Source: Exobasidium rhododendri (taxonomy: Eukaryota > Basidiomycota > Exobasidiomycetes > Exobasidiales > Exobasidiaceae). From it: DNA of 64,000 bases. Every line of letters starts with the position of its first letter. The stretch's first letter is position 1. The notes beneath the pieces are model-generated. The model was given only the letters and a program-made list of their open reading frames with translations, did no database searches and was not told the origin of the DNA. This document shows positions 13,904 through 38,269 of the stretch, piece by piece. Location: assembly GCA_026210745.1 (NCBI GenBank), contig CP110630.1:2108001-2172000 (forward strand), given 5' to 3'. Made by a program: the position numbers and the translations under genes.

Positions 13904-16900
13904 CTAGGAGATCCTGACTACGATACTACCTGGCTCGACCTCACCTCCTCGCAGTGCAGTCTCGAAGGCTCTCGGTGCTTCACCAAATGAAAGAATACTC
14001 TGCAATCTTGGACAGATTTGTCCCCGTTCGGCTGCCACTTTCACAGCTTCAAGACCTTCACGGCAATCTTCGCCTGTGTCTGTTCCAACCCATTCGTAGC
14101 CAATCCTCTTGGTGTCCTTTTTGAAAAAGGATCGTCTCAAAGAACGCAAGTGAGACTTGAGATTGGGGTTGGCGGAGATGGATTGAGAATCGCCTACGCA
14201 TGTAACGAATTGCCCTTCAAATGCAATGATCCTTCTCGCGGCATCGTAGATCCTCCTTCCTCCAGCGGTATCAATGACCAAGTCGAAGCTGCTCTCATGT
14301 AGTGAGTTAAGTGCCCAGAGTGCGTCACCAATCACAACCTCCGAAGCACCGTTTGCTTCACAGAGAGCCACACCGTCTGAAATCGAAGCAGGGCAATGAG
14401 CTACGATGATGAGGCCCATGTTGGCAGATTCTTGCATCGTCAGCAATCCAACGCCATCATGAGCATTCAAGATCAAAATTCGTGAACCTCGCTTTAGTTG
14501 AGAGCAATGACTCGTCGTCATCTGATGCGCCAGGATACCAACCGAAGGCAAGGCGGCGATCTCTTCCGTAGTCAAGCAATCTTGCGGTGCTTTCGCTACC
14601 AAGTTCTGATCGATCGTCATGAACTCCGCCAAAGCTCCACATTTTCGACTATGTTGCAATCCGAACACGACGTCGCCTTTCCTCATTCTCTTCACTTCCC
14701 ATCCAGTCTCCATCACGCGACCACAGAAGCTTCGACCTGGGACGAAGCCATACGCATTTTCTGTTCGGATCCTTTCTCGAAGTAGAATCCGATCTGTTTC
14801 ATCGATAGCACAAGTGATGATTTGGACAAGCAGTTGCGTCGAATTTAGCTTTCGCGGTGGTGGTGTGTGAGCGGTCATACTCATTGTAGTTCGACTCAGC
14901 TCTTCTGTGAGACCATCTGGAACAGTATCGACGGAAACCCTGGATTGTCGTGCACTGTCATAAAGACTGGCGGACGAGACTTCTGCGGAAGATCTTCGCT
15001 TTCGAAGACTTTTGCTTCGAAATGCTCCACTCGTCACTGCGATAGTAGACATGGTCGTCTTTGCGTACAGTCGATCGTCAATGGTGTTGGAGGCCTTGAC
15101 TGGGTCTTGAGGTCGATACGAGCTTTGTGGGATGGAGGGAAGGCTCAACACACTCTGCGTCCCGTTCAAGCCGGAAATGTCAGATTCTGCGCCGAGGTAG
15201 GTGCCGCCCCAAGCCTGCACTCCATGGCCGTCTAAGCTTTCTGCGCGACTAGAGAGCGCTCTCGGTGCAAAGACTGAGTTGAGTTGAGTGTCTGGTGGTG
15301 TTCCACTTGGTGATTGACGGATGGGGGAAGGTGAAGCCGAGTGGTCTCTCTGGAAACCACCTTGACCCCTGGAAGCTCTGTTCATTGCAACAGGAGAGTC
15401 GACATACGATGGCAGGGGACTGACACTTCTTGCCCTGCTGTCGATTGGACTACTTTCCCATTCGCTGATGGATGACATGAGCGAAGTACGGGCTTGACCA
15501 GTAGGACCGGCCGATAACGTTCGAATCTTGCGATTGTAGTTCACCTTTCCGTTGGACGTATCCGAAAGAGCACTAGAGGAGATGTTGGAAGAAGACATGC
15601 CAGATCGACCAGAAGCACTGGGAGCAGGTGAGGGTGAGGGAGAAGTAGAAGCGTGAGATCGAGAGCGAATAGAATCTGATCCAACTGATGAGTTCGTCTC
15701 GCTCCGATTGGACGGTATGGCTAGATGAGGGAGTGAGCCAGGCAAAAGCGGCACAGGAGGTGCACCTGCTAAGCTATGATTGAGGGCAGAAGACGATTTA
15801 CGGATAGAAGGGTCCGATGTATTGTAAGAAGGGCTCGCATAGACTCGACTAGGAGTGTTTGATGACCTTTTTCCTTTACTCTTCTTCTTTTGAATTGTAC
15901 CGTCAGTGGAAGGATCAGACGTTGCAGTGGCAGAAGATCGAGGTTGAGAATCGATGCTCTGACGACGCTGTACAGAGCTTGCCACAGTTGTCACACTAAG
16001 GCCGTTGGGCAGATTTATGCCCTGACCCTGATAATCACCTCCTACATTCGACCTGTGACTACTGCTACTGCCTTTCTTGGAACTGCTTCTCCTTACTGGA
16101 TCAGATGAATCGCTCCTTCCGTTGATTGACCTCTGCCTGGAGTTACTCCTTTGCATCGCCATTGCTTCGTTGAAGCCATCTTCGCCCGGTTGCTCCATGA
16201 CAGTGGCAGGTGCTGCCCCTCTTGGAGCCTTTGAGGTGATATTCGTATAAGAGTGGCTGGTCTCGAGAGCAGGAGGAGTAGGTGGAATCAGATTGATACC
16301 AAAGGACGGTTGCTCCACTTCTGCCAATGGCGTTCTGTTGTCGTCGTAGTACATCGCGCCAGATCGAGAACTTTCAAATGACGGTGCTTCTCTTCCCATA
16401 GTCGATGTAGGTAAGACGCTGTCTTCAAAGGTAGGCGTCGGAGGCATAGGAAGCTTCTTCTCTGTTGCAAGTCCATTCATTGAATTTTCCCCGTTCTTGA
16501 CACCGGGTAAAGTCATACTATCCAGGATTTCAGAAGCGCCCGATGTAGCAGGATCAGAGCTGTTGCCACTTTCGCCAGACCATAGCTCAGAAGGATTGTT
16601 TTGTTCCCCTTGATCGCGTTGAAAGTCCGACAATTGTCTAGGCTGTTCTTGCGTGGGAATCTCCTCGACCTCATGGTGAGCACTGCTGGCTTCTTCAACC
16701 TGCCTCTCCCGTACATCACTTTGAGAAGGAAGTTCCTCTCCGTCTTCGCTCGACAGGCGGGGTTCAGACAGAGGAACAGAGGCTGGCTTTTCGTCCAAGG
16801 CACCTTCTCGCCCTTCGTTGAGATTTTCGCGCGCTGTATGAAACCTAGTCATTTGTGGTGTAACGTCTGCAAGTGAAGCCTTCTCTTCGCTTCTTACGTC

Positions 16901-19900
16901 ATCGTTTGCCAAATCCTTCTCAGCTGTCACCGTCTTGACTTCCTTTGACGCTACCTTTGAAGAAGAAGAAGGAGATGCAGGAGAATCATGGAGAAGACTT
17001 GCTTTCTTCTCTGCAACGCTGTTTCTTCTCTTCTTCTTTTCGTTTGATGATGTCGAGAATGAGAACAAAGTGTCGGCTAACGACTTGGATTCTTTTCTAC
17101 CTTTCAGAGCTGATTTCACTGGTGCAGGCTTGTCTTTACTGGAAGGCAAATTCGATGGCTTCATTTCAGGTGAAGTGGGAAGGGACGGAGGCGGTAGAAC
17201 AGGACTCTTCAGCTTTTCTTGAGCCTCTTTCATTTGCGACAGTGTTTGACTATTAGCGAGTTCAGGGAAGGTGGACCGGACGTCTTCCGTCACCTTTGCT
17301 GGTTCTGGCTTTTCCTCTGCGGCCAGTCTGCCTTGCGAGATAGGCACACCGCCCATCACCTTTGGTTTTGCAGCTCTATTTCTTGGTCGATCCATCACAC
17401 TCTCCTTCTTCTTTTCCGCTTCAACAGGGGCAGACACACCAAAGAAGCTCCGGATACGAGCCGACGTAGAACCATGCGCAGAAGAGGCTAGACCGTCACT
17501 TGACGCGGTGGAAAGCTCTCGACCGTGTCCCTTGCGTGTCACAGGTGAAGATGTGGCGGAAGGTGCATTGGCAGGAACGACGGGCGGTGTTGCTGATACT
17601 GCTGCTGCTGCCGCCACGACAGGTGCGTCCGCTTGATTCAGCAACCAGACTGCTGCAAAACTAGGAGCGATGCCACTTTGGACAGTCATCGCATCACTGT
17701 TTTCTCGTCTCTTCGACTTGGTTCCCGTGCCTAATTCTCCTCTCAGTCTCCGCACTTCCATGATCCTCTCCTGTGCATTGTTGTTGAGGATTTCTTGTGT
17801 ACTGAGTGCGGCTGTGTCTCTTTTTGTCGATTTGGAGAAAGGTCCGACGTTCAGGTCCAACTGACTAACTGCATTACTGGGCTCATCGTCCCAACCAGTC
17901 TTTCCAAACTTATCAAGAATGCTGGAGAGTGAACCGCCAAAGAAGTCTTCCCCTACTTTCATGTTCCGCAACCTTTCTTGCTCGGCTTTGATCTTTGCTT
18001 TGAAGTCGGCATCCGTTTCATCATCTGACCCTGAATGAGCAGAATCAGAATCTCCGTCCCTCATTTTGAACCTTCTTGAAGAAGAGGCTTGTCCTCTGAT
18101 GATACCACTCATTCCAAACGAAGTGCCAACACTAATGTCGCTCAACCTCCGTGACAAGGTAGGTGGACGAGAGCCTGATCGAATGCTGGCACTCCTGCCT
18201 TTCGTAGCTGTATCTCCCGAATCGATCGAGTCTCCGTCTCCCTTACTCTGCGCGTCCTTGGAATGTGGATCAAAGGTGACTGTTGCCTTGCCGGTTTGTG
18301 TGCTCCTCATCGATCGGGTGTCCGACTTGTCATTTGGATCCAGTCTTTCATCAGATTTCATGATCTCGGAAGGACCCAGTCTCTCATCAGATTCTACAAC
18401 ATCGGAAGAACCCAGTCTCTCGTCAGATTCTACTTTATCAGAAGAACCCAGTCTCCCATCAGAGACTACGTTAACACTAGAAATCACTTCGTCTTTGAGA
18501 TCTGCTCTCCTGTCAGACATCAAGGTATCAACAGATGGCACCTTTGATTCATCTTCCACCTCGCTAGAAGTTTCTACTTCCTCTGATCTGTGTGTAGTTT
18601 CGGTCAAATTCGAGTTGACAGACGTGCTGTTGGTGACGTAGGGCTGGGATCCAACAATTGCAGGAGGTAGATCCTCTTTGGCCGTTGATGCTACTGTCGT
18701 CAAAGCAGTAGGAGGACTCATTGTCACACTAGTTGGTGAGACAGCTCCACTGCCAGATCCATGACCGACACTGGAACGGTTGGTATTCAAAGCTGCCTCG
18801 AATGCTCGATACTTTGCTGCACCCACCACCGCTGCTCCTCCGGTGCTTGCAATCGCTAGTGGATGACGACGCATTTCATGACCTGCGCTGCTAGTCTCTT
18901 CCTCTTCTTCGCGAAGTGCTTCCAAATATCGACTTTCCTCGCTATCGCCTTCGCTCGAATTCTCTTCTTCTGATGAAACACTTTCGGCAGCTTGCACGTT
19001 TACGTTGGGAATAGAAGGTAGGTTACCATTCCGCAGCTTGGGAGAGGTAATTGGGCTTAAAGCTCGCTCTGGTGTGGGTACGTTCCTAGCACCATTCTGC
19101 TGAGGCGGAGAGATGATGGATCCGGGTCGTACATTGGTCCCCAACGAGTCAATCGCGTTATGCTTGAATCCAGGAGGATGACCGACAACTTGACTGGCAG
19201 CTCGAGCAAGCAGATCCTGATGAACGACACCGGGATCCCTGATGACTTGCTCGAATTGCGCTTCATGCTGAAGTTCCTTCTGGAGTCGAGCCATATTACT
19301 CTTCCGTCTTTCGACGCCATTCACTGGTCCCTTCTTCAAAGCTGCTGCTACGTTTGAAACATCACCACTTCCTCCTTCCCAGACCTTTGAAACCTCACTG
19401 CCTTTCATGCTTTGGACGAATTGATTCCAATCCTGTGAGCCCCTTTGAGCGGTACGCCTAGAGTGGCTCGAGTCACTGAAGGTAGGCGACTGAGCTCGCG
19501 GCGGTGGGGAGAAGGAGCGATCGATGCTTTGACCCTTTTTGAGGTTCGATTGGGAAAGTGTGCTCATTCGTGACTTGGAAGGTTTGCTGCTCAGCGAGGG
19601 ATTGAGTGTAGTTGATCCTAATGGAGCTACATTAGATTGCAACCGTCCGGCTGGTGCTCCGCTGGTGATTCGACTGTCAAGTTTCGGCATGGGTGGCACG
19701 ATGGAGGATCTGCTGTACGATCCGCCAATATCGCTCCTAGCACCTCTATGCTTCTGTCCTACTCCGACCCCTGAGCCGATTCCTGCCATCCCTGACCACG
19801 TATTCATTCCAGTGTTCCATTCTGGCTCGGAAAAGATGCTGTCACCTGCAACACTCGAAGCTCTGTTCCTCTTGCCAAAGTTCATGCTGCCTGCTTCCCA

Positions 19901-20305
19901 CCATCTGCCTTTCTTTCGCGAGAATGTCGCACTGCTATCGGCTACGCTACTCGGTGCGTAGTGGCTTCCGCCGTTGTCCTGGTCAAAAGTATAAGATCCT
20001 GGCATTTTTGAACCCGCCTTCCGACTTCGGAATCGTGACGATATGGATCCTCCGGCTACTGAGCCAGCATTCGACCTTCCGGCGTTTGAGTCTCTCCCTG
20101 AGTACTTCCTGCTGGTGTCTTTTCTGAACATGCTACCGGACAGTATGGATGATGGCGCAGCCGGTGCACTCGGTAAGTCAGAGGGTGCAGACCATTTCGA
20201 ATTAGGTCCTCTGCGTTGATAGTCTGGATACCTGTCTGAATCTGAAGCCGCATAGCTCTGAGAAGGCCTCTTCAGGATAGAGTCCAGAATCGAAATTCGA
20301 GGCAT
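13904..20305 (-). CDS. Giant disordered protein with C-terminal medium-chain reductase domain
   Basis: One uninterrupted frame of 2133 residues. Residues 1 to about 1800 are rich in Ser, Pro, Thr and charged residues, with many SP sites and no recognisable fold except a short tandem repeat. From about residue 1805 the sequence becomes a medium-chain dehydrogenase/reductase (quinone-reductase-like) unit: GFVPGRSFCGRVMETGWEVKRM is the GroES-like part, ILILNAHDGVGLLTMQ the nucleotide-binding loop, and FDLVIDTAGGRRIYDAARRI a later core strand. The usual glycine-rich loop is altered (HDGVG), so cofactor binding or catalysis may be weak. Such domains occur in the yeast membrane-associated protein Ast1, but orthology is not shown. 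A scaffold role at the cortex is only a guess. No introns were needed. Confidence 0.8.
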   Translation of the reverse strand: MPRISILDSILKRPSQSYAASDSDRYPDYQRRGPNSKWSAPSDLPSAPAAPSSILSGSMFRKDTSRKYSGRDSNAGRSNAGSVAGGSISSRFRSRKAGSKMPGSYTFDQDNGGSHYAPSSVADSSATFSRKKGRWWEAGSMNFGKRNRASSVAGDSIFSEPEWNTGMNTWSGMAGIGSGVGVGQKHRGARSDIGGSYSRSSIVPPMPKLDSRITSGAPAGRLQSNVAPLGSTTLNPSLSSKPSKSRMSTLSQSNLKKGQSIDRSFSPPPRAQSPTFSDSSHSRRTAQRGSQDWNQFVQSMKGSEVSKVWEGGSGDVSNVAAALKKGPVNGVERRKSNMARLQKELQHEAQFEQVIRDPGVVHQDLLARAASQVVGHPPGFKHNAIDSLGTNVRPGSIISPPQQNGARNVPTPERALSPITSPKLRNGNLPSIPNVNVQAAESVSSEEENSSEGDSEESRYLEALREEEEETSSAGHEMRRHPLAIASTGGAAVVGAAKYRAFEAALNTNRSSVGHGSGSGAVSPTSVTMSPPTALTTVASTAKEDLPPAIVGSQPYVTNSTSVNSNLTETTHRSEEVETSSEVEDESKVPSVDTLMSDRRADLKDEVISSVNVVSDGRLGSSDKVESDERLGSSDVVESDERLGPSEIMKSDERLDPNDKSDTRSMRSTQTGKATVTFDPHSKDAQSKGDGDSIDSGDTATKGRSASIRSGSRPPTLSRRLSDISVGTSFGMSGIIRGQASSSRRFKMRDGDSDSAHSGSDDETDADFKAKIKAEQERLRNMKVGEDFFGGSLSSILDKFGKTGWDDEPSNAVSQLDLNVGPFSKSTKRDTAALSTQEILNNNAQERIMEVRRLRGELGTGTKSKRRENSDAMTVQSGIAPSFAAVWLLNQADAPVVAAAAAVSATPPVVPANAPSATSSPVTRKGHGRELSTASSDGLASSAHGSTSARIRSFFGVSAPVEAEKKKESVMDRPRNRAAKPKVMGGVPISQGRLAAEEKPEPAKVTEDVRSTFPELANSQTLSQMKEAQEKLKSPVLPPPSLPTSPEMKPSNLPSSKDKPAPVKSALKGRKESKSLADTLFSFSTSSNEKKKRRNSVAEKKASLLHDSPASPSSSSKVASKEVKTVTAEKDLANDDVRSEEKASLADVTPQMTRFHTARENLNEGREGALDEKPASVPLSEPRLSSEDGEELPSQSDVRERQVEEASSAHHEVEEIPTQEQPRQLSDFQRDQGEQNNPSELWSGESGNSSDPATSGASEILDSMTLPGVKNGENSMNGLATEKKLPMPPTPTFEDSVLPTSTMGREAPSFESSRSGAMYYDDNRTPLAEVEQPSFGINLIPPTPPALETSHSYTNITSKAPRGAAPATVMEQPGEDGFNEAMAMQRSNSRQRSINGRSDSSDPVRRSSSKKGSSSSHRSNVGGDYQGQGINLPNGLSVTTVASSVQRRQSIDSQPRSSATATSDPSTDGTIQKKKSKGKRSSNTPSRVYASPSYNTSDPSIRKSSSALNHSLAGAPPVPLLPGSLPHLAIPSNRSETNSSVGSDSIRSRSHASTSPSPSPAPSASGRSGMSSSNISSSALSDTSNGKVNYNRKIRTLSAGPTGQARTSLMSSISEWESSPIDSRARSVSPLPSYVDSPVAMNRASRGQGGFQRDHSASPSPIRQSPSGTPPDTQLNSVFAPRALSSRAESLDGHGVQAWGGTYLGAESDISGLNGTQSVLSLPSIPQSSYRPQDPVKASNTIDDRLYAKTTMSTIAVTSGAFRSKSLRKRRSSAEVSSASLYDSARQSRVSVDTVPDGLTEELSRTTMSMTAHTPPPRKLNSTQLLVQIITCAIDETDRILLRERIRTENAYGFVPGRSFCGRVMETGWEVKRMRKGDVVFGLQHSRKCGALAEFMTIDQNLVAKAPQDCLTTEEIAALPSVGILAHQMTTSHCSQLKRGSRILILNAHDGVGLLTMQESANMGLIIVAHCPASISDGVALCEANGASEVVIGDALWALNSLHESSFDLVIDTAGGRRIYDAARRIIAFEGQFVTCVGDSQSISANPNLKSHLRSLRRSFFKKDTKRIGYEWVGTDTGEDCREGLEAVKVAAERGQICPRLQSILSFGEAPRAFETALRGGEVEPGSIVVRIS
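18341..18484. repeat. 36-bp coding minisatellite, four copies
   Basis: CAGTCT followed by a CATCAGA-type core recurs at 18341, 18377, 18413 and 18449, exactly 36 bases apart. It encodes twelve-residue repeats of the form SDERLGSSDVVE in the disordered part of the giant protein. The outer copies are more diverged than the inner ones. Confidence 0.9.
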
Positions 20306-29227: not shown

Positions 29228-30412
29228 CTAGTTGTCATCCAGCAGCCGATGGGCAGACATTCTCTCAAGGTATGAGACGTTGTGCCCCTCCTCCTTGAAA
29301 GGCCTTTGCGGATCTGCAAGTCTGGCTATGGGATCATAGGCCTGCCCACTAGTCTCAATCTCGATGTTGCAAAGCTCTTCAGCCATGGTCATATAGTCGC
29401 ACACTGAGTCGCAGTGACATTGAAGGAAGACTCTGTCGTCCAATTGTGGAAGATAGGCTTGCAGGGCGGAGAAGGGGATGCCTCCCAGCTCGTGATGACG
29501 AACAAGGGCTTCGATGAGGGGATCAAAGAGCTCGGCCGCTGCTGGCACTTGTTCTTTCAGTCTAGGTGTACTTGTTGTAATGACTGAGCAGTCCAGCATT
29601 GCACTACTAGATTGGGCATCTGCCTCTTTCCACAGTCGTTCAATCTGCTCTTTAAAGGAAGGAACGCCTACTCTACGACGAATCAGCCAAGGTCGCTCGA
29701 TCTCTCGAAAGCGAATAGTCTCGTCCCCTTTCTTTGGTCCTACCTCGATGACCAGATCCAGGTGCTCTTGCATCACAACTACCAACTGACTGAATTTCTT
29801 CACACCCACTCTGAGCAGCGCTTCCGGGTCGACCCTTTGCATACCAGAAGCGATCATACCCATGTGAACTCCGCGCCTTTTGGAGCTATGCTGCAGGTCA
29901 AGCAGGACTCCTACAAAAGACCTCATCGATAGAGTCAGTTGGTCGATCTTCCCATTCTTGGATGACTGAGAAAGAGAATTTGCAGAGGGGTTTGGATGGG
30001 CGACGCTTTTTTTGGAACCTGTGTTGGTACTTTTCTTCGAGAGATGTTGTGTTTTCGTAGGTTGCTTTACATTAAACCTCCTCTTGCTGTGGGATCTAGT
30101 AGCATTTGCCACCGTGTGATCTCCTACTGCTGGTAGTGGTAATGTGGAAGGGCTCTGCTGCTTCGGTAGCGGTGCGAGTGTTAATTGATCTGACAATCGT
30201 TCGAGCTGAGCCTTCAGATAGATCAAATCACCGACAGTGCTTGTAACTTTGACTTTAATATCTTCTACCGTCTTCAAGGCATCATTGACGGCATGCAGAG
30301 CTTCTCTTTGGGAGGCAAGAGGCATCTCAATCAGCCGACTCGACGAAGAGGTAGGAACAGGCGTCTGCTCTCGCCCTTCTCTCGTCTCTGCCCATCGGTC
30401 AGCGTCAGACAT
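29228..30412 (-). CDS. Tandem paralogue A: coiled coil plus predicted winged-helix-like modules
   Basis: A 394-residue protein starting MSDADRWAETREG. Upstream in-frame codons are non-ATG, so this ATG is chosen. Near residue 45 a helix reads ALHAVNDALKTVEDIKVKV and continues as a coiled coil. A basic Ser-rich linker follows. Next comes a helical module (SFVGVLLDLQHSS and following, ending with ETIRFREIERPW) whose helix-helix-beta pattern resembles a winged helix of the OST-HTH/LOTUS type. A second such module ends in MTMAEELCNIE and LADPQRPFKEEG. The gene at 30872 shares the same blocks in the same order. I know no characterised family with this layout. Nucleic-acid binding is inference. Confidence 0.75.
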   Translation of the reverse strand: MSDADRWAETREGREQTPVPTSSSSRLIEMPLASQREALHAVNDALKTVEDIKVKVTSTVGDLIYLKAQLERLSDQLTLAPLPKQQSPSTLPLPAVGDHTVANATRSHSKRRFNVKQPTKTQHLSKKSTNTGSKKSVAHPNPSANSLSQSSKNGKIDQLTLSMRSFVGVLLDLQHSSKRRGVHMGMIASGMQRVDPEALLRVGVKKFSQLVVVMQEHLDLVIEVGPKKGDETIRFREIERPWLIRRRVGVPSFKEQIERLWKEADAQSSSAMLDCSVITTSTPRLKEQVPAAAELFDPLIEALVRHHELGGIPFSALQAYLPQLDDRVFLQCHCDSVCDYMTMAEELCNIEIETSGQAYDPIARLADPQRPFKEEGHNVSYLERMSAHRLLDDN

Positions 30413-30871
30413 TCGTGGGACTCTGCTCTTTGTCAGGAGACTGTCAAGTGCGATAATCTCAGTATCGAACACTACGAGACGGGGAAATGGGGCAAGGAAC
30501 AGCGACGGAGGTATTCTCAAATACACACAGCCAGATACGTGAGCGTTTACCCGGCTCGGCAAAGCAGTCAGCCCACTCACCTTTGAGTGGCAGAGGAAAG
30601 GGACCGAGCACCGTGAAGTGCGACTTCCTCGACAAACGTGACCACACGCATCGCAGCTCTTCCGACAGACCTGGCGAAATACCTTGTCTGATTGAGAGTG
30701 CCACTCTGCAGCGCACCGTAGAGATGAGTTGAAATTGACTTAGAAAGGATAGAAAGATGAAAAAGACTCGTAACAGCGGCAGATATGTATCTAAATTGTA
30801 TAAATGTACTGCAACTCGGTTGCTTCCCCTCGAATGATGTCCTGTCTCGCCATGAAAGCAAAGCTCTTTAA
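30413..30871. other. Spacer between the tandem paralogues
   Basis: About 460 bases containing the promoter of paralogue A. Open frames run through parts of it, but they start with non-ATG codons and show no similarity to the paralogues. Confidence 0.4.
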
Positions 30872-32005
30872 TCACTCCTTGTATGGCCGAGAAGGATCAG
30901 TCAATCGGTACTGGATACTGTCTCTAGCTCCATACCCTTTGCGTTCGATGTTGCATACTGCTTCGGCTAGTTGCATGTGCTCGGCTATCGTCAAGGATCC
31001 GCTCTTGGTAAAGGTCAAGCCATCCGCGAGAAGCAACTTTTTTTTCAAGGCTTGATTCTTGATCCAATGTCCATTAGCCAGAACCGCTCTCAAAGAATCA
31101 AAGAGTTCTCTTGGAGGTCTTCCATCAGCGAGCTGGCGAAGTCTCTTTATTTGCTGCGCCAGCGAAGGCAGCCGTTTCCTCGAGTGTGTCCACCAGGGAT
31201 TCTTTAGATCCTCAAGCCTTAGGCTGTAATGTCCAGATTTTAGGTCTGCTTTGGACTCAAAATCTAGATAGAGGCCAACCCACTGCTGAGCTTCTGTCAG
31301 AAACGTTGAAAAGTTGAATCTTGCCACCTCCTCTTCTGTACACCCCTTGCGAAGTTCCTGCTGTAATTTATCGCTGAGAATGCTTGCTCTGACCATTCCG
31401 TTCGATGATGCACGCTGTAAGTCTTGTAAGAGCTTCACAAATGACTGCAAGCGGGGATCATCTTTTGATTGTAGCATAGGATTCTCCCTTCTTGGTCTCT
31501 TATGGACAAGACGTGCCTCGCGTTGATTCTCACTCTCCATTTCTGAAGAAGGTCTCGATCGAAGAACCCCCGCAGCTGATGGCCTTATCGCTCCTTGCAT
31601 CGATCTTCGTTCTTCAGTGACGTTTGCCACTGATGTCTCACTATCTTTGTTCGCTGCGTCGCGACTCCAGGTTGTCTGTACCGTCCGCTCTCCTCTTCTT
31701 TCACGCTGCTGCTGCTCCTCGCCATGTGAAGATACCGTGCAACTGGACCTCAGACCCTCAAGCTGGCATTGTAGATGTGTCAACGAGCCCACGACTGTCG
31801 CTTTCAGGTCCTCGACAGTCTTCAACGCTTCGTCAAGTGAGGAGACCGGGCTTCGCTGTTGATGGAAGGCAAGATCTTGTTCGTGGCCGCTCGACGGTGG
31901 TTCGGATTCTGGTGTGTCTTCTCGCCTCCAAAAGACTGGCACTGTATCCTCTTCATCCTTGATGGTCAGCTTGGTCAAATCCGTGTTGCTAGACCCTCTG
32001 CTCAT
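30872..32005 (-). CDS. Tandem paralogue B: coiled coil plus predicted winged-helix-like modules
   Basis: A 377-residue protein starting MSRGSSNTDLTKL, with the same order of blocks as its neighbour at 29228. It has SLDEALKTVEDLKATVVGSL in the coiled coil, a Ser/Arg-rich linker with basic clusters (KRPRRE), SFVKLLQDLQRAS opening the first module, HYSLRLEDLKNPWW closing it, AQQIKRLRQLADG as a connector, and LFDSLRAVLANGH to MQLAEAVCNIE in the second. The C-terminus LTDPSRPYKE matches LADPQRPFKE. By eye the pair is clearly homologous but diverged, roughly a third identical in the aligned cores. This indicates an old tandem duplication. The function is unknown. Confidence 0.75.
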   Translation of the reverse strand: MSRGSSNTDLTKLTIKDEEDTVPVFWRREDTPESEPPSSGHEQDLAFHQQRSPVSSLDEALKTVEDLKATVVGSLTHLQCQLEGLRSSCTVSSHGEEQQQRERRGERTVQTTWSRDAANKDSETSVANVTEERRSMQGAIRPSAAGVLRSRPSSEMESENQREARLVHKRPRRENPMLQSKDDPRLQSFVKLLQDLQRASSNGMVRASILSDKLQQELRKGCTEEEVARFNFSTFLTEAQQWVGLYLDFESKADLKSGHYSLRLEDLKNPWWTHSRKRLPSLAQQIKRLRQLADGRPPRELFDSLRAVLANGHWIKNQALKKKLLLADGLTFTKSGSLTIAEHMQLAEAVCNIERKGYGARDSIQYRLTDPSRPYKE

Positions 32006-33091
32006 CGATTCGCTTCTTGTACCTACGATTGAGGTGCCCAAGAGGATGAAGTAGGATGAAAGAAGAAGAAAGGAGCCAGGCGATCAAAGCTGAGCTACCG
32101 CCATGAGACGGAGCTTCGGCATATTTCTTGGTCCGCTCGGTCTACGCCATATGCGTTAGGTCGCGCTTCATCGACGGCTCAGAGCGGATTCATGTCCAGA
32201 CAGACAACGGCAGACTGATGACTAGACGCAGGATGACCTCTCGCAGATAATGTCACAATGAAGTCGCACTTCATGGGGTGTGATGTGCTGGCGTATGACT
32301 TCGCATCCCCAGATCTGCCATGCAGCGGCGCCTTTAACAGCCACTGTTATCACCTCACCTTGCCTCGGTCGCACATTTCCCAAACGAGATCACAACGGGA
32401 CGAGACCTCTCCCTCACTGGGTGTAAATGCTGTCCTCGCAATCACTATACTCTGTCAAGATCCGGCAAGGTGATCGTTTCATGGCGACCGTGGGGATCTT
32501 TCGCTTGTACTCAGGCTGTGTCAAGTGCGGGCAACGTCCTCCGCTCTGATTCTTAAGAAGAGGAAACGGCCGCTGCTCTCTCGATGTCTTCCGGCTCTAC
32601 TCTTCGATCTGTGCAGCATTTCACCCTCCTCGCTGCCGACGTCGTTCGAATTGCGCTGGCGTGCAAGGCCGTTCTCTCCAATCATGAAAGATCCATCTTC
32701 CTTAGCGGCTTGCAAATGGATGGCGGCAAATGGAAAGTAGTCCCCACGTTTCCTTCTGCCCTTTCACGATGCAATACTGCTATCAATTAACTTCCTTTTG
32801 TGGGGGGGAAAGGGGAAAGAGGAAAGCGCGAATCTTCACCCGCAACGACAAAAGCAACGCGTCCGGGTCTATCTAGGCCCTGGCGCTAAGCCGGACTTTT
32901 GCAGGCTTTCACCCTGCTGCCTTGTTCGAATTCGTTTCAATGCTTGCAGTGACCAAAGAATTGCAGTCATTTCGAGATCGGGAGCACTGAACGAGAGTCC
33001 TGGGAGGCAAAGAGTAAAGTGTAAAAGGACACCGCTTTTCTCCCCTACCCATCTTCCTTGCACCCGCCTTCATCGTCGTCCTCCCTTCGAC
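32006..33091. promoter_or_regulatory. Long divergent intergenic region
   Basis: Nearly 1.1 kb between paralogue B and the TMEM135-like gene, which are divergent. Several short open frames exist on both strands without domains. The final 150 bases are pyrimidine-rich as expected of a 5' leader. I see no defined element. Confidence 0.4.
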
Positions 33092-35294: not shown

Positions 35295-35720
35295 CTAGAC
35301 CATCTTGGACCGCAGGGTGTGTGCCCAGTGCATCTTGACACTCACAAGCGTGCGAGGTGGATCTCCCTCACATCGATTTGCGTTGATCGTCTTATGGATT
35401 TCGTGCCAGTCGATTCCCTTCTCTCCAACGCTCACGATAGTCTCTCTGATTATCGAGTCTTCCCAATCCGCCCACTTAGAGCGTAGTGGGTTGCGCACTC
35501 CCTTGGATGGTGACCCGGATCCAGCTCTGAATACTCCTTTGCGCTTGCTTGGAGATGAGAAAGGAGAAGCAGGAGCGCTGAGAGGTGAGCTGACGGGGGT
35601 CAAAGTAGACTTCGAGGTCGTTGGTGACTTTGCCCTCTTGTGAAGAATGTTGAAGGACTTCTTCGATGTTGGTGCGCTCGTTTTAGCGTCTATTTCGCCT
35701 TTTGTCAAACACTCTCCCAT
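35295..35720 (-). CDS. Myb/SANT-like protein 1 of a four-gene cluster
   Basis: A 141-residue protein from MGECLTKGEIDAK; earlier in-frame codons are non-ATG. Residues 1-80 are rich in Ser, Pro and Lys with many SP and TP sites and a basic patch in SPSKRKGVFR. The last 62 residues form a Myb/SANT-like domain: KWADWEDSIIRETIVSVGEK, then GIDWHEIHKTIN, then VKMHW. The tryptophan spacing W-x2-WE-x16-DW, followed by IN and a final HW, is shared with three neighbouring genes. Such domains bind DNA or histone tails. Here the domain ends a few residues before the stop, as in the other three. The in vivo role is unknown. Confidence 0.72.
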   Translation of the reverse strand: MGECLTKGEIDAKTSAPTSKKSFNILHKRAKSPTTSKSTLTPVSSPLSAPASPFSSPSKRKGVFRAGSGSPSKGVRNPLRSKWADWEDSIIRETIVSVGEKGIDWHEIHKTINANRCEGDPPRTLVSVKMHWAHTLRSKMV

Positions 35721-36303
35721 CTTCTCGTCGATGGCTCTGTCGATGCTGAAGCTCTGATGCAGTCTTAGCGGACGAAGTCTTGAATGTATCGTGGTGCTTT
35801 TCAGGTGTCTCGGTGACGTAGTTGCAGTCAAGGTGATCGTGTCGAGGGGAGCGAGAGAGGGTGAAGGGGTGATGGGGGAATATTCGCTAAGTTGACGAAG
35901 AGCAAGTAAGTGGGGCCAGATGCAATATCGTGTCTTCACTGCACCTCGGTAAAAGGGGAGGGTGGAATTCCGCTTTTTTTGCTCGAGTGGGAAGCAAAGG
36001 GGCGAACGCACTGTCTGTCGAGCAGAGGCAGCAAGGGAGCGCTTAGAGTAATCTACTCGGTGATCTCGGTCGCTGCGACACGAACGTTTGGATTAGTAGA
36101 CGCCAGGAGACAAGACTAGTAAGTAGTGACGCAGGAGGTTGGAATCGAGCGGAGCCTTGCCTTGCCTACAAGATTCGTTGTCGAAGCAGTCGAGAGGCGA
36201 AACTCTTTGCACCTCTCCTCGCTCCGTTATCCAGAGCTACAGACGACGCCCGACGTGGTCACTTTGAAGAGCAAAATTACCATCGACGATAGAAGCGGAT
36301 ATC
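35721..36303. promoter_or_regulatory. Divergent region between Myb/SANT-like genes 1 and 2
   Basis: About 580 bases between two divergent family members. An open frame extends upstream of gene 1 without an ATG, so a spliced 5' exon cannot be excluded. No TATA box is obvious. Confidence 0.4.
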
Positions 36304-36660
36304 ATGGTCAACATAGAGCATGGCAAGGGCCGTCCTTTGTCGGACGATCGTGCTGGCTTGCCGACACCGAGCACGCCACCAAAGAGCAAGGACAAGATCA
36401 ACTTACAAACACCTAGCTCTGCCAGCAAGCGGAAGAGGATGGAAGCAGAAAAGAGTTCTCCGTCCTCTCGCACTGCCTCAAAGTGGGCAGACTGGGAGGA
36501 CAAGATGATGATGGAAGCGGTAATTGCGGCGGCAGAGGAACGAATCGACTGGCATGCTCTCGCCAGTAGGATCAACGGGGAGCGAGACCCGTCCGACCAA
36601 CGGACTTTGAACGGCATCAGGCTACACTGGCGACAGCAAAAGACGAAACTGATAGAGTGA
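36304..36660 (+). CDS. Myb/SANT-like protein 2 of a four-gene cluster
   Basis: The shortest member, 118 residues, and the only one on the plus strand. The N-terminus (MVNIEHGKGRPLSDDRAGLP) is followed by TP sites and a basic KRKRMEAEK. The domain reads KWADWEDKMMMEAVIAAAEE, RIDWHALASRIN and IRLHW, matching the other members position by position through the second tryptophan. It ends eleven residues after the HW motif. It looks like a minimal DNA-binding protein with no other domain. The inverted orientation relative to its neighbours shows that the cluster has been rearranged. Confidence 0.75.
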   Translation: MVNIEHGKGRPLSDDRAGLPTPSTPPKSKDKINLQTPSSASKRKRMEAEKSSPSSRTASKWADWEDKMMMEAVIAAAEERIDWHALASRINGERDPSDQRTLNGIRLHWRQQKTKLIE

Positions 36661-36861
36661 AGGCATGCAGTAAGCAAATCCTGTAGACTGTAAAGAAAAC
36701 CGTTTAGAATTCGATTTGCTGTGTAAGCAATCCTCGCTCCAGTCATCGTGCTTGGCTCTCAGATGCAGGTGTGTTGACGACGACGTCTAGACGTCAGTAG
36801 CTGGTAAGTATGTATAATTCATTGAAGATGTAAGCCAGCAGTTACATGGTCATGTGTGATC

Positions 36862-37419
36862 TCACAGGAGAAGGGACGGTTTCATCTTCATTGACCAGTG
36901 CCGCTTGAGTTCTCGCAGCGATCTGCTGTCCCTTTCGCCTCGTCCCAGGTTGATGGTGTCGAGGAGAGCGTACCAATCGATACCCACCTCTCCGAACACC
37001 ACAATGGCCTTCACTATTAGTTTCTCTTCCCAGTCGAACCATAGCGTACTGTCCTCTTTTGCTGTTGTGCATGGCTGGGTGAGAGCTCGCTTGCGCCTGC
37101 GGGTGGGGGAGGGAGTGGCAGGAGGGATAGACCGCTGTCTATTTGTCGTCTTGTGCGGTGTCGACGTGGGACTTCCATTCTCTTTGGCTCGCCGAATATG
37201 TTCTTCTTGCCTGCCTTTCAACGGCGTACTTGGAGCGCTGGCAACAAGCCTCCTGGTGGTGATGTCTTTGCGTTCGCGATCTTCTTTGTCGACCACGGAG
37301 ACAGCAGGACTTCTTTGAGAAGGCTGGGGTGGGAATTGAGTCGGCAAGACCATACTCGTCTTTGATCTTGCAGCGTAAGGACGAGATGGGGGTGTAGACG
37401 AGACAGCTCGCTCTGGCAT
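36862..37419 (-). CDS. Myb/SANT-like protein 3 of a four-gene cluster
   Basis: A 185-residue protein from MPERAVSSTPPSRPYAARSK. The N-terminal 120 residues are disordered with several SP/TP sites and two basic clusters, the second being SPTRRRKRALTQ. The domain reads LWFDWEEKLIVKAIVVFGEV, GIDWYALLDTIN and LKRHW. It keeps all aromatic positions of its neighbours, although the residue before the first tryptophan and the surface residues differ. The protein stops shortly after the domain. It is the longest member, through its N-terminal tail only. Confidence 0.74.
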   Translation of the reverse strand: MPERAVSSTPPSRPYAARSKTSMVLPTQFPPQPSQRSPAVSVVDKEDRERKDITTRRLVASAPSTPLKGRQEEHIRRAKENGSPTSTPHKTTNRQRSIPPATPSPTRRRKRALTQPCTTAKEDSTLWFDWEEKLIVKAIVVFGEVGIDWYALLDTINLGRGERDSRSLRELKRHWSMKMKPSLLL

Positions 37420-37771
37420 TACGTTGTGGGTGCTTGGAAGGTCGCTCACATCCCTGCTGCTATAGTATTCCTACCTCTCCAAGTCACTCCAAATCACGTC
37501 GACTTACTCGACATGTAAGCCTACAGAGCACCACGCCCTCCGGAAATCACTCCCCGCTCCCGGCTACCGATCACTCTCCATCTCGAAGGACGTTGTAACT
37601 CATCAGATCATCATAGACAAACCTTTCTGCCTCCTTGTGACCCGGCGCCTGGATCCTTCTTGGATCCTTCGTTATCAGACTATGCAAAGGCAGTGTGTAG
37701 GTCACAAGCTTATCTCATTTCAAGCTAAATATGCGTAAAAGACCCATGGTGTGCAATTCTTTACATCACCA
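37420..37771. other. Spacer between Myb/SANT-like genes 3 and 4
   Basis: About 350 bases holding the gene 3 promoter. GGATCCTT occurs twice close together near 37650-37665. No gene is seen. Confidence 0.4.
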
Positions 37772-38269
37772 TCAAGAGACTAACGCTGGTTTCATGATCG
37801 CAGACCAGTGCTGCTTCAGCCCTCTCATCGTCCGAGGCAAGTGCGGATCTCGACTTTGATTAATCTTGTCCAGCAGGGTGTGCCAGTCCGTGCCCTGTTC
37901 TCCCACCGACACGATCGACTTCATGATCATCAAGTCCTCCCACACCTCCCATTTGGCTCCACACGACTTGCTTGGGGTGTTGCTAAGATCAGTCTCGGGT
38001 CTTTTGCGCTTATTGGGCGACGCCGGCGAGGGTGACGTGTCATTGAAATGGCGGTGCTTACACGGCGACGACGAAGTCCGTCCACTGCCTTGTTGGGAGT
38101 CACGCAGAAATTTCGCTTGGCTGCTAGGTGGGGTGCGAGGATACTTCGCTGGAGATGCACCGATCGATCCACCTTCCTTTCCACCTTCCTTCTTGACAGA
38201 TATCGTGTCTCCGTCAAGCATATGTTTGCTGCGGTGGTCATTGAGAGCTTGTCCAGAATTGGTCATCAT
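37772..38269 (-). CDS. Myb/SANT-like protein 4 of a four-gene cluster
   Basis: A 165-residue protein starting at the first of two adjacent ATGs (MMTNSGQALNDHRSKHML). It has SP/TP sites, a basic SPNKRKRPETD and then the domain KWEVWEDLMIMKSIVSVGEQ, GTDWHTLLDKIN and LKQHW. It shares its C-terminal MKP motif with member 3 (MKMKPSLLL against IMKPALVS), so 3 and 4 appear most closely related. A possible SUMO-type site (VKKEGGKE) lies in the N-terminal part. The function is unknown. Confidence 0.74.
   Translation of the reverse strand: MMTNSGQALNDHRSKHMLDGDTISVKKEGGKEGGSIGASPAKYPRTPPSSQAKFLRDSQQGSGRTSSSPCKHRHFNDTSPSPASPNKRKRPETDLSNTPSKSCGAKWEVWEDLMIMKSIVSVGEQGTDWHTLLDKINQSRDPHLPRTMRGLKQHWSAIMKPALVS

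What the first reader, a model, noticed from the sequence alone, without database searches (positions are those of the whole stretch)
35295..38269. Cluster of four small Myb/SANT-like genes with one shared architecture
Four genes within 3 kb encode proteins of 118-185 residues that all end in the same domain. The first 23 positions from tryptophan one to DW align without any gap in all four, and three of the four keep the same length to the final HW. Each has a Ser/Pro-rich N-terminus with SP/TP sites and a basic KRKR-type patch 20-30 residues before the domain. Gene 2 is inverted. These are standalone DNA- or chromatin-binding modules, locally duplicated and diverged. This looks like a lineage-specific expansion, possibly of regulators or silencing factors.
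Basis: partly seen in the sequence, partly recalled or inferred. Interest (0 to 1): 0.82.

Follow-up and report, generated by a model that had tools for sequence, protein, structure and literature searches.

The report
Four duplicated small fungal Myb-like genes
A fungal chromosome carries four small neighbouring genes, old copies of one another, that probably make nuclear DNA-binding proteins of the widespread Myb type; the group is real and poorly catalogued, but of a familiar kind.

Summary
Four uninterrupted frames (141, 118, 185, 165 aa) at 35295-38269 share a C-terminal domain of about 59 residues; in none of six pairs do 10,000 shuffles reach the observed score. Six-frame protein searches of the 17.6-Mb genome found the domain only here. 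One outside relative was found, a metagenome protein 51% identical to gene 4 and closer to it than the four genes are to each other, so the duplications are probably older than that split.

The Myb assignment is plausible but remote. No window protein reaches a Pfam cut-off. Against 14 Myb domains of the same genome the cluster profile scores 25.3; the best of 300 permutations is 17.3, a homeodomain control 6.3. AlphaFold predicts three helices at modest confidence; Foldseek finds nothing significant. A basic helix 3 in 5 of 5 sequences favours DNA binding.

Most likely: nuclear single-Myb regulators, three with a CDK-type SPx[KR] site on the nuclear-localisation patch. Silencing is unsupported; a Harbinger-transposon origin got no support in a weak test. 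New member of a known kind.

The parts
35295..35720 (-). gene 1, 141 aa; C-terminal Myb-like domain from residue 83; SPSKRK element at residues 56-61; frame stays open upstream to 36092, so the 5' end is uncertain
36304..36660 (+). gene 2, 118 aa; Myb-like domain from residue 61; KRKR at residues 42-45 without an abutting SPx; listed in the protein database with the same 118 aa (P0002)
36862..37419 (-). gene 3, 185 aa; Myb-like domain from residue 127; SPTRRRKR element at residues 104-111
37772..38269 (-). gene 4, 165 aa; Myb-like domain from residue 107; SPNKRKR element at residues 84-90; closest of the four to the metagenome relative P0001 (51% identity)
35721..36303 (.). 583-bp gap between the divergent genes 1 and 2, possible shared promoter (inference from layout only)

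Best explanation
The four genes are old tandem duplicates of one small nuclear regulator gene. Each protein has a Ser/Pro-rich, probably flexible N-terminus, a basic patch that looks like a nuclear-localisation signal, and one divergent Myb-type three-helix domain at its C-terminus. Shown here: the shared domain, no further copy found in six-frame searches of the genome, signs of coding constraint, a remote but non-random similarity to Myb profiles, and a basic third helix. Inferred: the third helix contacts DNA. Because a single Myb repeat usually binds weakly (recalled), the proteins would act as dimers or with a partner. In genes 1, 3 and 4 the SPx[KR] site on the basic patch suggests that a proline-directed kinase such as CDK gates nuclear entry (CDK consensus and mechanism recalled). 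The likely role is transcription control, with paralogues diverged in targets or timing.
For: Domain alignment with shuffles. No copy outside the cluster in five protein searches of the genome (three of five weak extra hits read). Profile comparison with 14 Myb domains of the same genome: score 25.3 over 44 columns, 0 of 300 column permutations reach it (best 17.3), reversed 8.2. Control with 5 homeodomain stretches 6.3; leaving out any one Myb gives 23.0-27.6. Sub-threshold Pfam matches to PF00249, PF13873 and PF13921 (best E 0.0063, 0.0039, 0.009). Best genome Myb for the cluster HMM: L026, 9.3 bits, E 0.0019 in a 33-sequence search. Three helices predicted for gene 4 and gene 2, with the tryptophans in helix 1, at the start of helix 2 and in helix 3. 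Helix 3 with tail net +4 to +5 in 5 of 5, the rest of the domain net -4 to -6. SPx[KR] directly on the patch in 3 of 4 genes, chance 0.02-0.04 per gene in shuffles.
Against: No Pfam curated cut-off is reached (for gene 2's domain). Two of the five Pfam families matched at E <= 10 are not Myb. Foldseek's best PDB match is E 5.0 for the gene 4 model and E 8.6 for the gene 2 domain, neither a Myb. Model confidence is modest (pLDDT 75, pTM 0.50). Of 14 genome Mybs, each scored singly against the other 13, 13 score higher than the cluster does (32.6-57.9 against 25.3; the remaining one 20.4). In a six-frame scan of 51 fetched non-cluster loci, most of them Myb loci, the cluster HMM gave nothing below E 0.05. 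Gene 2 lacks the abutting SPx site and P0001 has no run of three basic residues there. The paralogues are related, so the three sites are not independent evidence. Expression and DNA binding are untested.
Confidence: 0.55

Rival explanations
1. The domain is a SANT-type protein-interaction module (histone tail or corepressor contact), and the proteins are small chromatin-complex subunits rather than DNA binders.
For: The whole domain is close to neutral (net -2 to +1, pI 5.6-8.3), and SANT domains are similar to Myb domains (start of abstract of PMC6353875, seen in the listing).
Against: Helix 3 with tail is basic (+4 to +5, 5 of 5), whereas SANT domains lack a positively charged third helix (passage of PMC7432317). 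Net charge of the whole domain decides little: the genome's 14 Mybs range from -9 to +6.
Confidence: 0.25
2. An unrelated three-helix fold that only resembles Myb by tryptophan spacing and composition.
For: No significant Foldseek match and Pfam scores below cut-off.
Against: Column permutations keep composition and still fall short (0 of 300); the homeodomain control scores 6.3.
Confidence: 0.1
3. The genes are domesticated copies of the Myb-like helper protein of PIF/Harbinger transposons.
For: The genome holds 10 DDE_Tnp_4 places, and the one element read has a convergent ORF with a sub-threshold Myb_DNA-bind_4 match.
Against: The cluster profile does not match that ORF (score 8.6; best of 100 permutations 16.9). 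This test is weak: the ORF is a single sequence and itself scores only 13.4 against the Myb profile. The window holds no tblastn match to that transposase below E 3.2 nor to the ORF below E 0.24. The genome searches found no cluster relative elsewhere.
Confidence: 0.05
4. Telobox-type telomere factors: single-Myb relatives of TRF/Tay1.
For: By eye the third helix (R[TS][LM]xx[LVI][KR]xHW) resembles the LKDKW-type telobox, which is recalled and comes from no call.
Against: The cluster HMM scores only about 0.7 and -1 bits on the two consecutive, by eye telobox-like Mybs of this genome (C1:5569963-5570391). One Myb-like domain per protein and no TRFH domain in the Pfam scan.
Confidence: 0.05

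Closest known systems
Myb DNA-binding domain families PF00249, PF13921, PF13873
   Same: Three predicted helices, three spaced aromatic positions, acidic residues early in helix 1 (W..xED), basic helix 3; these are three of the five families matched by the domains
   Different: Below curated cut-offs; the profile alignment opens a 3-column gap between helices 1 and 2 and a 7-column gap before helix 3, so the loops are longer; extra W in WED
Fungal Tay1 and TRF telomere-binding Myb proteins
   Same: Myb proteins of fungi; TRF proteins have a C-terminal Myb (PMC7952879, passages)
   Different: No TRFH domain, no tandem Myb, much smaller than the roughly 150-kD UmTay1 (passage); low profile scores to the genome's own two-repeat Mybs
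FLASH C-terminal SANT/Myb domain (PMC7432317, passages)
   Same: SANT/Myb domain at the extreme C-terminus of the protein (passage)
   Different: Not compared by sequence here; FLASH is a huge animal protein that binds NPAT (abstract start)

Membership tests
Myb-like DNA-binding domain (Pfam Myb families) | Profile score over the curated cut-off | tested here: not met
   whole proteins: best 14.9 bits vs 24.4 (PF00249, gene 2); genes 3 and 4 no family at E <= 10; gene 2 domain 17.0 vs 24.4; PF00249, PF13873 and PF13921 match 2, 1 and 1 of 5 members at E <= 10 (bits of the other members not shown)
Myb-like DNA-binding domain (Pfam Myb families) | Remote homology to Myb domains above chance | tested here: met
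   score 25.3, 0 of 300 permutations; homeodomain control 6.3, leave-one-out 23.0-27.6
Myb-like DNA-binding domain (Pfam Myb families) | Three-helix fold superposable on solved Myb domains | tested here: inconclusive
   Three helices, but no significant Foldseek match and no VIA-align match among the 4 and 1 chains it could align
Myb-like DNA-binding domain (Pfam Myb families) | Positively charged third helix (against SANT) | tested here: met
   +4 to +5 in 5 of 5; criterion from a PMC7432317 passage
Myb-like DNA-binding domain (Pfam Myb families) | Binds DNA | not testable with these tools
   needs a binding assay
TRF/Tay1 telomere factors | TRFH dimerisation domain or two consecutive Myb motifs | tested here: not met
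   no Pfam family other than sub-threshold Myb models in genes 1 and 2, none in genes 3 and 4; one Myb-like domain per protein
PIF/Harbinger Myb-like helper protein | Sequence similarity to the genome's own helper ORF | tested here: inconclusive
   score 8.6 (permutations up to 16.9), but the ORF is a single sequence and scores only 13.4 against the Myb profile itself; 1 of 10 places was read
PIF/Harbinger Myb-like helper protein | Transposase gene beside it | tested here: not met
   no tblastn match to the L070 transposase in the window below E 3.2

The most novel reading that the evidence does not exclude
A so far uncatalogued fungal family of single-Myb regulators, kept as a four-gene cluster across lineages, in which a cell-cycle kinase switches nuclear entry of three members through an SPx[KR]-NLS element while one member (gene 2) has lost the switch, so that the cluster works as a timed set of competing or pairing DNA binders.
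Probability: 0.1. Interest if true: 0.5.

Novelty: new member of a known kind. Interest (0 to 1): 0.3.

Why it matters
It points to a subfamily of fungal Myb-type regulators that Pfam does not capture above its cut-offs, and gives a small set of four neighbouring paralogues for studying how tandem-duplicated regulators diverge. It overturns nothing.

Tried and rejected
Telomere-factor reading: the third helix resembles the telobox by eye, but the cluster HMM scores near zero on the genome's own two-repeat Mybs. Domesticated Harbinger helper protein: no support, a test of limited power (see rivals). A fifth, diverged copy: gene 3 gave four extra places (E 0.0105, 0.0151, 1.21, 5.83) and gene 1 one (E 0.11). 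Three of these five (L013, L014, L021) were read and are Ser/Pro-rich or broken stretches without the domain; L015 and L016 were covered only by the HMM scan of 3464 stop-to-stop pieces from 51 non-cluster loci, whose best hit was E 0.052. Virus or prokaryote relatives: 59 and 106 pattern matches, none confirmed. Protein database: one search did not list the window's own gene 2, although one search did, so failure to list further relatives is weak evidence of absence. Gene 2's domain alone matched one PDB chain at E <= 10, a mut-7 exonuclease homologue at E 1.5. Literature: four listings on Myb families and expansions (15 of 94, 12 of 1761, 15 of 1156 and 10 of 14 papers listed) showed none on such a cluster; only titles and abstract starts were seen, and the library lacks most subscription papers. 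Passages of PMC3998117 held nothing on it.

Corrections and dropped rows. The first statistics script took the wrong DW; its pairwise and codon rows are void and one search replaces them. In one search loci on the minus strand were not turned, so its scores hold for plus-strand loci only; one search turns them. One search took 18 of the 33 Myb loci L025-L057: thirteen of the other fifteen overlap places already taken, and L049 (stops inside) and L056 (short) were left out. Of the 18, L052 was dropped for a stop, and L025, L029 and L032, which lack helix 1, were dropped, leaving 14. The homeodomain control used the 5 of 7 places over cut-off. The sigma-70 promoter scan does not apply to fungi and was not used. 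Foldseek hits in the viral library (best E 4.5) are not meaningful. Rfam and tRNA searches of the window found nothing.

Full report
Setting. Large frames around the finding match SMC, ABC (ABC-F by nearest solved chains), NIF-type phosphatase, PP2C, DHHC, M24 peptidase and DUF3533 families, DUF3429, and TMEM135 below cut-off. That this is a fungus, probably a basidiomycete, is my inference and was not tested.

Observation. Four frames of 141, 118, 185 and 165 aa occupy 35295-38269 in the strand order - + - -. Genes 2 and 3 converge; genes 1 and 2 diverge over 583 bp. All four share a C-terminal domain that begins at a tryptophan and runs to the last residues. Over the 49 aligned columns W..HW the six pairs share 20-24 identities with scores of 122-140, while 10,000 shuffles per pair never exceeded 27. 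Third codon positions differ most (162 of 294 against 114 and 96), and each frame is the best of six in codon usage, with low absolute scores. One search lists gene 2 as a 118-aa protein (P0002). These look like real, constrained genes and not chance frames.

Extent of the family. Five protein queries against the whole genome in six frames found the four genes and nothing else convincing. Gene 3 gave four further places at E 0.0105 to 5.83 and gene 1 one at 0.11; three of these five were read and lack the domain. An all-against-all comparison of 338 stop-to-stop frames of the window (E <= 1e-4) found only two paralogue groups, this one and a pair at 29-32 kb, besides one match between frames antisense to genes 1 and 4. 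Among 5.8 billion proteins the four-sequence alignment found one relative below E 10, P0001, a 175-aa JGI metagenome protein (E 3.5e-28). Domain-only searches with P0001 and with gene 2 returned only the query itself. That search needs shared five-letter words, and itself did not list gene 2, so more relatives may well be missed. Viral and prokaryotic contig scans confirmed none. P0001 is 51% identical to gene 4, against 40, 39 and 30% to genes 3, 2 and 1, and pairs with gene 4 in an unrooted five-sequence tree (support 0.865). Its distance to gene 4 is the shortest in that tree, so the duplications are probably older than the split of the two lineages; a root on P0001's own branch is not excluded.

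What the domain is. No window protein reaches a Pfam cut-off. Scanned as isolated domains (P0001 whole), members matched five families at E up to 10: PF00249 in 2 of 5; PF13873, PF13921, FANCM-MHF_bd and DUF2264_C in 1 of 5 each. Three of the five families are Myb. A stronger test used 14 of the genome's own Myb domains: profile against profile gave probability 66% and score 25.3 over 44 columns, aligning the three tryptophan positions with the aromatic positions of Myb; 300 column permutations peaked at 17.3. The same profile against five homeodomain stretches of the genome scored 6.3, and leaving out any one Myb left 23.0-27.6. For scale, each of the 14 Mybs alone against the rest scores 20.4-57.9, 13 of 14 above 32. 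The cluster is thus a remote Myb relative. The alignment opens gaps between helices 1 and 2 (3 columns) and before helix 3 (7 columns), so the domain carries longer loops than these Mybs.

Structure. AlphaFold gave helices 103-124, 129-138 and 148-164 for gene 4 (mean pLDDT 54, about 70 in the domain) and 2-26, 30-39 and 49-64 for the isolated gene 2 domain (pLDDT 75, pTM 0.50). Foldseek against PDB gave nothing significant for either model (best E 5.0 and 8.6). With five sequences in the alignment the packing is uncertain, so this neither confirms nor refutes the fold. By sequence, the only solved chains matched by the profiles at E <= 10 were SNAPC4 chains at E 0.24 and 0.034-0.084, not significant, and the best stretch there covers only the start of the domain.

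DNA or histones. A published criterion says that SANT domains lack a positively charged third helix (PMC7432317, passage). Here helix 3 plus tail carries +4 to +5 in all five sequences, and the rest of the domain -4 to -6. This favours DNA binding without proving it.

N-terminus. The N-terminal parts are 33-41% Ser, Pro and Thr. In genes 1, 3 and 4 a full CDK-type site SPx[KR] ends in the basic patch (SPSKRK, SPTRRRKR, SPNKRKR). In shuffles this adjacency arises at 2-4% per gene. Gene 2 has the patch without the adjacent site, and P0001 has no run of three basic residues there. The CDK consensus and the idea of a phosphorylation-gated nuclear signal are recalled knowledge. The genes share ancestry, so the three cases are not independent.

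Rivals. A transposon origin was tested because the genome holds 10 DDE_Tnp_4 places and the one element read carries a second ORF with a sub-threshold Myb_DNA-bind_4 match. The cluster profile does not match that ORF (8.6 against permutations up to 16.9), but the ORF itself matches the Myb profile only at 13.4, so the test has limited power. The telomere-factor reading fails on architecture and profile score (PMC7952879 and PMC7744550, passages).

Verdict. The kind is known; Pfam does not capture this subfamily above cut-off. Interest is modest.

Noticed in passing
29228-30580 (-) and 30872-32041 (-): A second local paralogue pair (frames of 450 and 389 aa, 27% identity) without a Pfam family above cut-off; a search with the first found only the pair in the genome.
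   Followed up: partly
13904-20305 (-): A 2133-aa single open frame: about 1800 residues that read as Ser-rich and low in complexity, joined to a zinc-binding alcohol-dehydrogenase-like C-terminus (PF08240 and PF13602 over cut-off).
   Followed up: partly
L070:853-2340 (+) and L070:2355-3419 (-): PIF/Harbinger-like element: DDE_Tnp_4 transposase and a convergent ORF with a sub-threshold Myb_DNA-bind_4 match. Ten DDE_Tnp_4 places in the genome, 8 of them within 0.5 bits of each other, which suggests recent activity.
   Followed up: partly
L028, L031, L044, L047 (G000 C1:5569963-5570391): Two consecutive Myb motifs in one open frame, by eye of telobox type, resembling the Tay1 telomere-binding family.
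   Followed up: no
G000 contigs C1-C4: Three large contigs (7.13, 5.45, 4.98 Mb) and a remainder of about 88 kb by subtraction: possibly three chromosomes and a mitochondrial genome, few for a fungus (the comparison is recalled).
   Followed up: no
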